Assembly: GCA_037349315.1 (NCBI GenBank)
Contig: JBAIAC010000042.1
Location: forward strand, 1,054,001-1,118,000
DNA length: 64,000 bases
Direction: 5' to 3'
DNA from: Chelydra serpentina
Taxonomy: Eukaryota > Chordata > Testudines > Chelydridae
Shown: positions 385-62,848 of the stretch, piece after piece
Position numbering within the stretch: the stretch's first letter is position 1
Layout of the letters: the number at the start of each line of letters is the position of its first letter
Position numbers and translations under genes: made by a program
Notes under the pieces: generated by a model
What the model was told of the DNA's origin: nothing
The model's database searches: none
The model's input: the letters and a program-made list of their open reading frames with translations, nothing else

Positions 385-493
385 TCACACAGGTTTACTG
401 CAGATCCATTTTCTCAGCGAGCTGCAGCTGGAGCTGCTGACTATGAGGTCTTCAACCAAGTATGCACAATTTGCTCCTCTTTGTATTTCAAAC
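385..493 (-). CDS. CLEC2-like: CLEC2-like terminal exon: end of the CTLD and stop codon
   Basis: 109 coding bases beginning after a ttacag acceptor and ending with TGA at 385-387. It encodes FEIQRGANCAYLVED, then the serine-rich loop with a cysteine and the closing KWICSKPV, giving the three C-terminal cysteines of a CTLD. Only 213 bp separate it from the central exon. No AATAAA was found in the 380 bp left downstream in the window, so the polyadenylation site is probably outside or non-canonical. Confidence 0.88.
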
Positions 494-3400
494 CTGTAAC
501 CCAGAGACAATTGGAGCTAGAGTCAGTGTGTGCCAGGCACAGACCAGGGGTGACACCCCAAGTCAGGGAGGGGAGCTGCGCACTCAGCCCCTCTGGATCC
601 CCCTCCCTGCACCAGCACCAGGCCCCACTCCCAGCAGGAGGGGACATTAAAGCAGCCAGTGGGGCATTTCCATCACCTCTGACCCCACGTGGAGAAAGAG
701 ACTCACCGATTGTCGAATTCGGTCCCGTTGACCCACTTCCAGACCTGGCCCGTGTCCTTCTGGAGGCCGAGCCAGTGGTCCAGTTTGCCTTTGTATGGCA
801 GCAGGGAACCCTTAGAAACCCAATAAACGCAATCAGCTGTGTTAGACCCTGACTCTGCTTCTCCCCATCTTGGGCAGCAGGGGATTTCTAGAGGCCTCTT
901 CCATTGTTACTGGGTGAAGGGATCAGATAAGTATTAACCCTTCATCCTCCCCCGTCCTCTTTTTGGGGCTGTGGCACCTACTGGGTGAAGCAGGAATTGA
1001 GCTGCAAGGTCACTGTCCACCCAGCAGCCCCTTCTCAGAGCACAGCAGGGCCAGGAGGGAGAGGGAGCTGCAGCGGGAGGGCAGACAGACCCCTGCCACC
1101 AAGGGCGGGTAAGTTGAGGGGAGGAGACCGAGCAGGCCTCTCCTTCAGCTGGATCCCCCCACCCCACCCATGAGGGAACCCTGGGGCTGGGCTGGGGAGG
1201 CAGGTTCTCACCCCCTCCGGCCCCCAGGCAGCCCACTGGCCTGGAGCTGACTGAGCTGGCCCAGCCCTGCACAGGGCGAGTCTCCCACCTGGGGCTCTGG
1301 CAGATGCAGGGTCGGGGAGGCTGGTGCCCCAGGTCCAGCCAGGATTCAGCTGCCAGAACCGCACTGACACTGGCTGCCCGGCTTGGGAGGCACCCGGGCT
1401 CCCCCCTGCCCTCCAGGGGCTGAGCCCAGCCTGACTCCAGCCCTCTCTGCTGTGCCGGCAATCGCTGGGCTTGGCACAAAGCATCTGTGCTCTCACCAGC
1501 TGCTGCAGATTATCAATCCCAGCCAAGGAGGCACCGTGTGACGAGCAGAAGCTCTGGCTGTTGGTCCAGTTCCCTTCGGCCTTAGAAAAATAGTACCAAT
1601 TCCCTCGGTTCCTGAACCAGCCGTCCGGGCACTGGGAGGCAGCAGTGGGGCAAGGAGGAGGCTGCTTAGATTTTTCCACTAAAAAAAAGAGAACACCCAG
1701 GGTGAGAGATCATCCCTTCTCTCGTCTCTCCTGGAGAACAAGCAGGAATAGCAACACACGAACTGCCAAGACTGGATCAGACTAGAGGGATACACAAGTG
1801 GTCTCTGAGAGCTGCCAGCACCAGCTGCTTCAGAGGGAGGGCAATGCACCCCCTAGTGGGCAGTGGTGGGGAAGCCGGCCCCAAGGAACATTTCCCACAA
1901 ATGCGGTCAGAGGCTGGCTAGGCCCCAAAGCAGGAAGATTTGTATTCCTATTCGTACCCCGATTCAGAGAGAAAACAGCCCGCCTGGAAGGGTCAGGAGG
2001 ACACGTCTGTCTGTCAGTGGCTGGCTCCTGGCCTGAAGCAGGAGGGTTTGTGCCCCTTCTACACTGAACCCTCTCCAGTATGACTCTGGATGGTCCCATT
2101 ACCCACATCAAGGTCCAGTCCTTTGATGAATCCAGCCGAGCTCTGGGCCTCAGTAACATCCTGTGGCAGCGACTTGGCCTGAGGCTGCTAGTTACGTATT
2201 TAATGCAACAGGAGACAGAGAAAAAGGTTTAACGGTGGTGCGGTAATTCAATCAATTCCACGGAATGGCCACTAAGGGGAATCAGACCCCAATGAGTGGG
2301 CGTGACCTGTTGGATTTTCTTGCTCCCAAAGACCATTTCAATCTTAAATCTACTAGAATTATTTGAGCGGGTCAACAAGCATGTGGACAAGGGGGATCCA
2401 GTGGACATAGTGTACTTAGATTTTCAGAAAGCCCTTGACAAGGTCCCTCACCAAAGGCTCGTAAGCAAAGTAAGCTGTCATGGGATAAGAGGTAGGTCCT
2501 CTCATGGATCAGTAACCGGTTAAAAGATAGGAAACAAAGGGTAGGTATAAATGGTCCGTTTTCAGAATGGAAAGAAGTAAATAGTGGTGTCCCCCAGGGG
2601 TCTATTCTGGGACCAATACTGTTTAATATATTCATCAATGATCTGGAAAAAGGGATAAACAGTGAGGTGTGCCCAGCCCATCCATTCCCTTACAGCCTGG
2701 TTAACTGCAGGTTCATGGGCAACTACAGAAGGTGAGAGGCACATCCATGGAGCGCGGCACCTTAGTCCAGAAGGCAGCGCAGGACGAATACTGAGTGTGT
2801 CACTTCTGTTATTGATTTCGTGGGAGCAGGAACATTAGGCAGAGGCACAAACAGAGAGGTGCCAGCCCTGCTGGGCTCCGCCAATGCCGCCTTGAAGACA
2901 AGGGGCACTCAGATCCATTCAGTTCTGACAGCCTCTCTGAGCGGGTTTCCCTCCTCACCCAACTCACGTATCAAAGCATCAGATCCCCTCAAATGCAGCC
3001 TGACCCCAGAGCTCACTACACTGGAGTGGGATTTGGGAGCAGTGAGCGCCCCTTCTAATAACCCCAGCAAGCACCACTCGGATTCCGCTTCCAGATCCTC
3101 CTGTACCCCATTGCCCCACTGACCCCCTGCAGCAATGTGTGGGGCTGTACATTGTAGTGAGGCTCACACTGACTGGAACTAGTTTGTAATCGCACATACT
3201 GGACAAGTTTAACGTCCCTGGGGAGCCTTCCCTTTGGAGATCCCTGACCCCTGGGTTAAATTCTCAGCAACACACCTGCAGTGATGGGGGCTTCCCCCCA
3301 CAGCACCTCCCAGCAACTTAATAAAGCTTGTCCCAGTGATGCTGTAGCCCCCGCCAGCCCTCTGTGGGGACAACCAGGGGGAGGGGAGGGAGGAAGGCCA

Positions 3401-61500: not shown

Positions 61501-62848
61501 GTTAACAATTTGGAGGCTTCATAGTTGTTGGTTTTAAATGAAGTAAGCTATATTAATGAATCATTATCAGGCCACTTGCCTGCCCGTTATTACTAGGCAG
61601 TTTACCATGGCTATCAGGTTACAGGGGGAACATAAGAAAGGATCTGAAGCAGGGCAGAGCAGTGGCTGAGTAGAATGGTTTCAGGAGGGCCATCCATGCA
61701 TAAGGGACAGTGTGGAGAAAAGGTGTGAAGGTAATTCTGGGAGAAATGGGTGAAAGAAGCTGCCATTGGTAAAGCTGCCCCTATTGTTATATGAAGAGGA
61801 GTGGAACTCCCACGGAAGAACAAGTTTCATTGTTATTTCTCACGCGGGGGGCTGATGGTGTTTCTCCAAACATTGTCTCTGACAGGTTCCCCTCCATGTC
61901 CCCAGTGGCATCGCATTGCTGTACTGGTTGGATGGGCTGGGAACATCGTCCTGACAATAGCTGTGATAGCCCTGGGGGTTTGGGGTAAGTAGCACCAATC
62001 TATTTATCCATTTGGGCTTAATGGTGCTCCATGAATTCTCTTCGCATTCCCAAATCTGAATGATATTCCACTCCTGATTCCTGTCCATTTGTGAATGACA
62101 TCCTAGGCATTACATCACCACCCAGGTCAAAATGATACAGGAACAATGTGCAGTTAAGAGCTGGATGCATGAAACTCATGTGATCCAGCTAAAACAGGTT
62201 CACTGTTACATGTGGATGGGAAGACAGAAATGCACCTATATTGTGTAGTGAATGAGATTCTCTCTTCCTCTGTCCCTACCCTAGCTGTGATGGATACTAC
62301 ACTGCTGATCGCCATATTTGGGGTCGGGAAGGAATTTTCCTCCAGGGTAGATCGGCAGAGGCCCTGGAGGTTTTTCGCCTTCCTCTGCAGCATGGGGCAC
62401 GGGTCACTTACTGGAGGATTCTCTGCATCTTGAAGTCTTTAAACCATGATTTGAGGACTTCAATAGCTGAGACATAGGTGAGAGGATTATTCCAGGAGTG
62501 GGTGGGTGAGATTCTGTGGCCTGCATTGTGCAGGAGGTCAGACTAGATGATCATAATGGTCCCTTCTGACCTTAAAGTCTATTAGTCTATGAGTCTATTT
62601 TACACCTCCCACAATTGTTTTTTTAATTCCTAAATGGCTGCAATAGAAGTGATCTTTTTATTGACGCTGATGCTCTTTTGAAGTTTCCCAGCTGCATGTC
62701 TCTGGTGAAGGACAGACCAGAGGAGCTCTGAATACATCGGAGAATAATGAAACCAGAAACGTCAGTAGCACTGAATGCTCCTGCAGAGAGGATTTCCGGT
62801 CTCGCTTGAAACTAATTCTATGTGAACCCCACAATGACAGCTTGGCAG
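55473..62848 (+). CDS. KLRB1-like: NKR-P1/KLRB1-type NK-cell receptor gene, first three exons (CTLD beyond the window)
   Basis: Exons 55473-55557, 61886-61984 and 62684-62848 join in phase 1 at both junctions and give 116 open residues of a type II membrane protein. Residues 5-10 read ILYADL, an ITIM-like I-x-Y-x-x-L motif for SHP-type phosphatases; YADLNIP strongly resembles the start of mammalian CD161. Residues 39-61 are the membrane segment with no charged residue, so signalling through the ITIM rather than an adaptor is expected. Residues 62-116 form the stalk, with four N-glycosylation sequons (78, 83, 87, 112) and three cysteines. The lectin domain exons are not in the remaining 1.15 kb. 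KLRB1 proteins recognise CLEC2-type ligands, and two such genes lie in this window. A KLRF- or chicken B-NK-like identity is possible. Confidence 0.85.
57560..57760 (-). mobile_element. Old CR1 3' fragment
   Basis: Reverse-oriented, diverged form of the CR1 3' end (read in reverse: 'ggtggattcttcatcactg', 'cccttcggaccttggactctg'). Confidence 0.55.
57992..58071 (-). mobile_element. SINE fragment
   Basis: 'tgttagtctttaaggtgcca' and 'cagactaacacagctacccc' are the reverse-oriented form of the SINE at 10776-10890. Confidence 0.6.
59010..59400. repeat. GC-rich insertion with homopolymer run
   Basis: Abrupt GC-rich island within AT-rich intron, with repeated 'cagcgcctcccgc' units (59079-59115) and a poly-C run at about 59357-59373. 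Probably a transposon interior; ends not resolved. Confidence 0.5.
60112..60432. mobile_element. hAT-type element, TSD GTTTAGGG
   Basis: 321 bp, ends cagggatctcaaactc and, in reverse, cagaggtctcaaacac, with perfect duplications GTTTAGGG at 60104-60111 and 60433-60440. It carries a right-end piece of another family (gagtcggcgcctatg, about 60353-60367), also seen at 18669-18683. Confidence 0.92.
61886..61984 (+). CDS. KLRB1-like: KLRB1-like exon 2: transmembrane segment
   Basis: 99 bp, phase 1 in and out, acceptor tgtctctgacag and donor gtaagt. It encodes SPPCPQWHRI followed by AVLVGWAGNIVLTIAVIALG. The CPQWH-like start just before the membrane resembles the SPWHQ of CD161. Confidence 0.9.
62303..62597 (+). 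mobile_element. CR1 3' end, young
   Basis: Almost identical over about 290 bp to the 3' end of the full CR1 element (34865-35155), differing at only a handful of bases by eye, and ending in the same ctatgagtctat tail. It lies in intron 2 of the KLRB1-like gene, in sense orientation. Confidence 0.9.
62684..62848 (+). CDS. KLRB1-like: KLRB1-like exon 3: stalk
   Basis: 165 bp, phase 1 in and out, acceptor gctcttttgaag and donor gtaacc. It encodes NTS, NET, NVS and NDS sequons, an ECSC pair and a closing LKLILCEPHNDSLA, which is typical of KLR stalks immediately before the CTLD. The aag acceptor is of the same less common kind as in the minus-strand CLEC2-like central exon. Confidence 0.85.

What the first reader, a model, noticed from the sequence alone, without database searches (positions are those of the whole stretch)
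385..62848. Linked CLEC2-type ligands and an NKR-P1/KLRB1-type receptor in one 62-kb interval of a reptile genome
Seen: three genes with consistent exon phases, two CLEC2-like and one KLRB1-like. Known: in rodents and humans NKR-P1 receptors bind Clr/LLT1 (CLEC2) proteins and the genes are interspersed; in chicken the B-NK/B-lec pair has the same logic inside the MHC. Inference: this is the reptilian counterpart, which bears on whether the ancestral pair sat in the NK complex or the MHC.
Basis: partly seen in the sequence, partly recalled or inferred. Interest (0 to 1): 0.85.

Follow-up and report, generated by a model that had tools for sequence, protein, structure and literature searches.

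The report
Turtle immune receptor-ligand gene array
The window holds a small piece of a large array of natural-killer-type receptor genes and their probable ligand genes in a reptile that is probably a turtle; the array lies beside MHC-type genes on the chromosome that matches the bird Z, which bears on where this immune system began.

Summary
The reported exons are real and their limits (385, 62848) are exact. Gene A (-) is CLEC2-type with a complete lectin domain. Gene B (+) is CLEC2-type but has no detectable last lectin exon, so it is probably a pseudogene. Gene C has only tail, membrane and stalk exons in the window; its lectin exons lie just outside. C is of the NKR-P1 (KLRB/KLRF) family: its lectin domain scores best against KLRF1/KLRF2, and a tree does not decide between KLRF and KLRB1.

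The window is a slice of an array of at least 20 receptor and 28 CLEC2 exon matches (C42:0.01-1.50 Mb). Thirteen of the 20 receptors lie tail-to-tail with a CLEC2 gene, as human KLRF1-CLEC2B and KLRF2-CLEC2A do. Gene A's partner is 2 kb left of the window.

The array is not in the A2M-marked NK complex. Contig C141, whose first half matches the array's end, also carries a class II alpha/beta pair and two CD1 genes; TRIM arrays and class I genes follow on C42, which carries SLC1A1, three DMRT-type exons and SLC1A3, hence corresponds to avian Z. The gene system is known (chicken, duck, passerines); I found no report of this linkage in a turtle. Binding and expression are untested.

The parts
385..493 (-). 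gene A (CLEC2-type): third lectin exon, with stop codon
   Evidence: WICSK motif, tblastn
707..810 (-). gene A: second lectin exon
1497..1678 (-). gene A: first lectin exon (starts VEKSK with the split Val codon)
   Evidence: joined domain matches CLEC2D E 3e-33
4643..4759 (-). gene A: transmembrane exon
   Evidence: hydrophobic segment; splice sites and phase 1; coordinates. First (cytoplasmic) exon not identified
36147..36254 (+). gene B (CLEC2-type, probably decayed): transmembrane exon
38705..38892 (+). gene B: first lectin exon
   Evidence: Pfam Lectin_C (with second exon)
39921..40024 (+). gene B: second lectin exon; no credible third exon found downstream
44351..44461 (-). remnant of a receptor's third lectin exon with an in-frame stop; probably the former tail-to-tail partner of gene B
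   Evidence: tblastn E 1.1e-7, 54% identity; partnership is inference
55473..55557 (+). gene C (NKR-P1 family receptor): first exon, cytoplasmic tail with ITIM-type sequence ILYADL
61886..61984 (+). gene C: transmembrane exon
62684..62848 (+). gene C: stalk exon; the three lectin exons follow outside the window (C42:1121100-1121252, 1121976-1122089, 1125117-1125236)

Best explanation
The window is a slice of a multigene array of NKR-P1-family (KLRB/KLRF) receptors and CLEC2-type ligands. The basic unit is a tail-to-tail receptor-ligand pair that was copied in blocks and then partly decayed (window gene B and the remnant at 44.4 kb are a decayed pair; gene A is the ligand half of an intact-looking pair whose receptor is just left of the window). 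Shown here: gene families, exon order, ITIM-type tails, open frames, tail-to-tail excess, linkage to class II, CD1, class I and TRIM genes, and placement on the avian-Z-homologous chromosome. Inferred: receptors on NK-like or T cells bind CLEC2 proteins on neighbouring cells through their lectin domains, the ITIM recruits SHP phosphatases and inhibits killing, and close linkage keeps matching receptor and ligand versions together. Also inferred: this region, not the A2M-marked NK complex, is the turtle counterpart of both the chicken/duck MHC-linked pairs and the passerine Z-linked pair.
For: Ligand family: CLEC2D E 3e-33, then CD69. Receptor family: KLRF1 1e-32, KLRF2 2.6e-32, KLRB1 7e-26 and weaker; tree separates receptors from CLEC2 types 96/96. 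Array: 20 receptor and 28 CLEC2 first-lectin-exon matches at C42:0.012-1.503 Mb; 20 of 20 and 27 of 28 without stops. Pairing: of 27 neighbouring receptor-ligand pairs 13 tail-to-tail, 6 head-to-head, 8 same-way; 6.9 and 5.8 tail-to-tail expected by two shuffles, P 0.0007 and 0.0004. ITIM-type tails in 5 of 5 cytoplasmic exons found (the query itself carried the ITIM, so other tails would be missed). dN/dS below 1 in every pair that gave a ratio. MHC-type linkage: class II alpha C141:1603768 and beta C141:1607699, two CD1-type genes C141:1.625 and 1.640 Mb, class I C42:4.47-4.78 Mb, SPRY and B-box exons. Chromosome: SLC1A1 at 12.21 Mb, three DM-domain exons at 13.99-14.15 Mb, SLC1A3 at 85.72 Mb of C42. 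Separate NK complex: A2M-family and lectin exons at C8:130-134 Mb, KLRF/CD69-like exons at C4:208.8-209.7 Mb.
Against: No expression, binding or polymorphism data. No class II exon on C42 itself and none near the window; most class II alpha and beta exons are on small unplaced contigs, so linkage to the core MHC is not shown. The class II beta exon on C141 changes frame. The C141-C42 join rests on one 5-kb comparison plus matching gene positions. Chicken B-NK did not recognise B-lec (PMC5002281 section 6), so neighbours need not be partners. 7 of 20 receptors have no tail-to-tail neighbour, and block copying makes the shuffles anti-conservative. CDC37L1 could not be placed (rang nowhere). TMEM52B and GABARAPL1 were not searched.
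Confidence: 0.8

Rival explanations
1. The array is simply the turtle NK complex, the orthologue of the human 12p13 NKC, moved or misassembled.
For: Gene content (KLRB/KLRF and CLEC2 in tail-to-tail pairs) matches the telomeric part of the human NKC (passages).
Against: A2M-family exons cluster at C8:131.1-131.6 and 133.9-134.1 Mb with lectin exons nearby, and C4:208.8-209.7 Mb carries KLRF-like and CD69-like exons; no A2M match on C42 or C141.
Confidence: 0.1
2. The array and its MHC-type neighbours are a recent, turtle-specific transposition of MHC material onto the Z-homologous chromosome, with no bearing on the ancestral state.
For: Sea turtles have their main MHC on chromosome 14 (PMC12891914 passages), not on the Z homologue; most class II exons here are on other contigs; a chicken MHC review says such pairs 'may translocate with some facility' (PMC8813856 passage); sea turtle chromosome 21 is an arm of the Z homologue in other turtles (PMC12448945 passage).
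Against: Passerines have the pair on Z beside SLC1A1 (PMC5002281 section 6), and anole chromosome 2 carries SLC1A1, KLRB1, CLEC2 and the core MHC at one end (PMC5002281 section 6; PMC9679377 passages), so the same combination recurs in three lineages.
Confidence: 0.3
3. The linkage is an assembly artefact: C42's first 10 Mb or C141 are wrongly joined.
For: C141 and C42 overlap as two haplotypes, so the assembly is not fully phased; both lie at contig ends.
Against: The fetched 264 kb has no N; receptor, CLEC2, B-box and SPRY exons are interleaved over C42 and over C141; C141 alone carries receptors, CLEC2, class II and CD1 genes.
Confidence: 0.1

Closest known systems
Human KLRF1-CLEC2B and KLRF2-CLEC2A (NKp80-AICL, NKp65-KACL) in the NK complex
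   Same: Tail-to-tail receptor-ligand gene pairs a few kb apart (7 and 3 kb; PMC3819593 passages); receptor lectin domain most similar by score.
   Different: Human KLRF receptors are activating (PMC3819593 passages), whereas the turtle tails carry an ITIM-type YADL sequence; three human pairs against an array of about 20 receptors; NK complex location.
Duck MHC NKRP1-like/CLEC2-like array
   Same: Large expansion (17 NKRP1-like, 20 CLEC2-like, nine adjacent pairs) next to MHC genes (PMC10845735 passages).
   Different: Duck array is in a 1.82-Mb MHC; the turtle array is on the Z-homologous chromosome and not shown to adjoin the core MHC.
Chicken B-NK/B-lec
   Same: NKR-P1-type and CLEC2-type genes linked to MHC, CD1 and TRIM genes (PMC5002281, PMC8813856).
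   Different: One head-to-head pair on chromosome 16 against many mostly tail-to-tail pairs on the Z homologue.
Passerine Z-linked KLRB1-CLEC2 pair
   Same: Chromosome homologous to Z, with SLC1A1 (PMC5002281 section 6).
   Different: Single pair between SLC1A1 and CDC37L1; here the array lies 11 Mb from SLC1A1 with TRIM and class I genes between.
Rodent Nkrp1-Clr cluster
   Same: Interspersed receptors and ligands; NKR-P1-like ITIM tail (recalled).
   Different: NK complex location; lectin domain scores lower.

Membership tests
CLEC2 family (CLEC2D/LLT1, Clr) | lectin domain closest to CLEC2D/CD69 | tested here: met
   gene A E 3e-33 to CLEC2D, 4.2e-27 to CD69; tree places A, D, E, F with CLEC2D and CD69 at 96/96, order among them unresolved
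CLEC2 family (CLEC2D/LLT1, Clr) | type II membrane protein: transmembrane exon, then three lectin exons | tested here: met
   gene A met; gene B not met, third lectin exon missing; first exons of A and B not identified
NKR-P1 family (KLRB1/KLRF) | six exons: tail, membrane, stalk, three lectin exons | tested here: met
   gene C, three exons inside and three outside the window
NKR-P1 family (KLRB1/KLRF) | lectin domain closest to KLRB1/KLRF | tested here: met
   best PDB matches KLRF1, KLRF2; KLRB1 behind a two-copy NKG2D construct in rank
KLRB1 in the strict sense | orthology to KLRB1 rather than KLRF | tested here: inconclusive
   scores favour KLRF; AU tests p 0.493 (with KLRF) and 0.39 (with KLRB1)
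NKR-P1 family (KLRB1/KLRF) | binds a CLEC2 protein | not testable with these tools
   needs binding assay
Mammalian-type NK complex location | linkage to A2M | tested here: not met
   26 A2M-family matches, 10 on C8, none on C42 or C141
MHC-linked location (as chicken B-NK/B-lec) | class II and CD1 genes on the same contig | tested here: met
   C141 carries receptors, CLEC2, class II alpha and beta and two CD1-type genes
MHC-linked location (as chicken B-NK/B-lec) | adjacent to the core (multicopy class II, TAP, C4) MHC | tested here: inconclusive
   multicopy class II exons are on C159 and C414, unplaced; TAP not searched; no A2M/C4-family match on C141
Avian-Z-homologous chromosome | SLC1A1, DMRT cluster, SLC1A3 together | tested here: met
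   the three DM-domain exons were not assigned to single DMRT genes

The most novel reading that the evidence does not exclude
Receptor-ligand pairs of the NKR-P1/CLEC2 system, CD1, class II and TRIM genes were linked on the proto-Z chromosome of the common ancestor of living sauropsids. Turtles keep this block, anoles keep the MHC there, passerines keep only the pair on Z, and the bird MHC microchromosome and the mammalian NK complex each hold pieces of it.
Probability: 0.35. Interest if true: 0.85.

Novelty: new member of a known kind. Interest (0 to 1): 0.58.

Why it matters
It has been argued for 20 years whether the NKR-P1/CLEC2 pair began in the MHC, in the NK complex or in a common region, with the passerine Z-linked pair as an odd case (PMC5002281 section 6). 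A turtle region that joins the pair array, class II, CD1, class I and TRIM genes on the Z homologue would tie the chicken, passerine and anole locations together and make the question testable by mapping a few more reptiles. It also offers a system of about 20 linked receptor-ligand pairs for study of co-evolution.

Tried and rejected
Genome-wide Lectin_C search did not list the window exons (150 of 346 candidates scored) and was used only to note other lectin clusters. CDC37_M search rang nowhere, controls included, and says nothing about CDC37L1. The idea that A, B and C form receptor-ligand pairs inside the window was dropped: A's neighbour is outside and B is incomplete. The reading of C as KLRB1 in the strict sense was dropped to family level. 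The reading that the array is the NK complex was rejected. Whether C42 corresponds in sea turtles to chromosome 6, 21 or both could not be tested. In the paper hunt, crocodile (PMC4263668), sea turtle (PMC12891914, PMC12448945) and freshwater turtle (PMC12055648) MHC papers had no passage on NK-type lectin genes for the terms asked. The B-box and SPRY exons are called TRIM-type because both occur side by side; by score the one SPRY tested is nearest BTN2A2, then TRIM7/TRIM15, so butyrophilins are not excluded. Three CLEC2-query rows (C42:569578, 712646, 753161) were dropped before counting as cross-hits to receptor exons; one receptor-query row at C42:9554101 was left out of the array as a distant partial match. 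Rows on C141 were left out of the pairing statistics.
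Full report
Observation. The window is C42:1054001-1118000 of a 2.28-Gb assembly. The named limits fall exactly on exon borders: 385 is the end of the last exon of gene A and 62848 the end of a stalk exon of gene C. Gene A (-) has a transmembrane exon and three lectin exons in phase. Gene B (+) has a transmembrane exon and two lectin exons; tblastn with four CLEC2 third exons found no credible third exon before the next CLEC2 gene at window-equivalent 88 kb. Gene C (+) has tail, transmembrane and stalk exons in the window and three lectin exons outside. At 44351-44461 (-) lies a receptor third-exon remnant with a stop.

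Families. Gene A's lectin domain matches human CLEC2D best (3e-33), then CD69. Gene C's matches KLRF1 (1e-32), KLRF2 (2.6e-32), a two-copy NKG2D construct (2.7e-29), rodent KLRB1 (7e-26) and human KLRB1 (9.5e-22). In an 18-row tree the receptors and the CLEC2 types separate at 96/96, but grouping the four turtle receptors with KLRF or with KLRB1 is equally acceptable (AU p 0.493 and 0.39). I therefore file C under NKR-P1 family, not under KLRB1. Its tail reads ILYADL, an ITIM-type sequence; its membrane segment shows no charged residue by eye, which speaks against a DAP12-type adaptor (recalled rule).

Array. Genome searches with one receptor and one CLEC2 first lectin exon gave 44 and 67 matches. 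On C42 between 0.012 and 1.503 Mb there are 20 receptor and 28 CLEC2 exons after removal of three cross-hits; 20 of 20 and 27 of 28 have no stop. In order along C42, 27 neighbours are of unlike kind: 13 tail-to-tail, 6 head-to-head, 8 in the same direction; strand shuffles give 6.9 tail-to-tail (P 0.0007), label shuffles 5.8 (P 0.0004). The 13 tail-to-tail pairs involve 13 of the 20 receptors, with 4.8-20.9 kb between first lectin exons. Because blocks were copied (for example 87-95% identity over stretches of up to 1.8 kb between two receptor neighbourhoods), these P values treat copies as independent and are too small. Gene A and the receptor left of the window are such a pair, with about 2 kb between their stop codons. 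Gene B and the remnant at 44.4 kb look like a decayed pair (inference). dN/dS was below 1 in each pairwise comparison that gave a ratio: receptors 0.16-0.52, one pair with no amino-acid change and one without an estimate; CLEC2 0.18-0.50.

Surroundings. A 5-kb stretch of C42 (300001-305000) matches C141 at 99.2-99.7%, antiparallel, and matched genes run in reverse order from C42:0 to 0.55 Mb against C141:0.54 to 0 Mb. I read C141 (1.67 Mb) as the other haplotype, or an overlap, that extends C42 outwards by about 1.1 Mb. C141 further carries CLEC2 exons up to 1.01 Mb, B-box and SPRY exons, a class II alpha exon (1603768, open), a class II beta exon (1607699, with a change of frame), and two CD1-type genes (1.625 Mb, best PDB match chicken CD1A1 at 5e-60; 1.640 Mb near-identical by eye). 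On C42 dozens of SPRY and B-box exons lie between 0.36 and 10 Mb, several inside the array, and four class I exons at 4.47-4.78 Mb; the one tested scores nearest to an MR1 construct, chicken Rfp-Y and BF class I.

Organism. The window has a tRNA-derived SINE tail that I recall from turtles; with the Z homologue at about 100 Mb this fits a turtle. No database named the species.

Prior work. Rogers and Kaufman 2016 (PMC5002281; abstract, passages, section 6 in full) describe chicken, passerine, penguin and anole locations and do not mention turtles. The duck MHC paper (PMC10845735, passages) reports 17 NKRP1-like and 20 CLEC2-like genes with nine adjacent pairs in the MHC, and maps of eight reptiles whose tables I did not see; a turtle may be among them. 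Anole core MHC is at one end of chromosome 2 (PMC9679377, passages), the chromosome that also holds SLC1A1 (PMC5002281). Tuatara has class I genes outside its core MHC, on chromosome 4 (PMC4502378, passages). Sea turtles: main MHC on chromosome 14 and a single class IIB gene on chromosome 1 (PMC12891914, passages). My searches for a turtle report (listings) showed none in that open-access library; subscription papers and preprints are not in it.

Verdict. The finding is real but cut by the window; the system is a known kind; the linkage to class II, CD1 and TRIM genes on the Z homologue is the point of interest. The step from linkage to ancestry is inference, and turtle-specific transposition remains a live rival.

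Noticed in passing
window 8545-9253 and 25961-26451: Tandem repeats of a 67-bp unit (about 10 copies) and a 58-bp unit (8.5 copies, 98% match).
   Followed up: no
window 30244-34024: Several long stop-free frames on both strands (up to 330 aa), not classified; a transposable element is possible.
   Followed up: no
C42:300001-305000 against C141:239001-244000 (L031, L032): Array end present in two near-identical forms; shifts of up to about 19 kb in matched gene positions suggest structural differences between haplotypes.
   Followed up: partly
C42:4.47-4.78 Mb (L035, L036): Four class I exons among TRIM-type genes, nearest by score to MR1 and chicken Rfp-Y/BF class I.
   Followed up: partly
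C141:1603768-1640211 (L033, L034, L049): Class II alpha and beta exons in divergent orientation beside two CD1-type genes; the beta exon changes frame.
   Followed up: partly
C42:9554101-9554193: Partial receptor-type lectin exon match 8 Mb from the array, among SPRY genes and nearer SLC1A1.
   Followed up: no
C48:42.1-42.4 Mb, C30:54.2-54.4 Mb: Two other dense clusters of lectin-domain exons.
   Followed up: no
C156:0.50-0.99 Mb: Six A2M/complement-family exon matches within 0.5 Mb, a local expansion.
   Followed up: no
window-equivalent -52000 to -30000 and 110000 to 135000: Two receptors with identical protein in the two lectin exons compared, in neighbourhoods 87-95% alike: a recent block copy.
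   Followed up: partly
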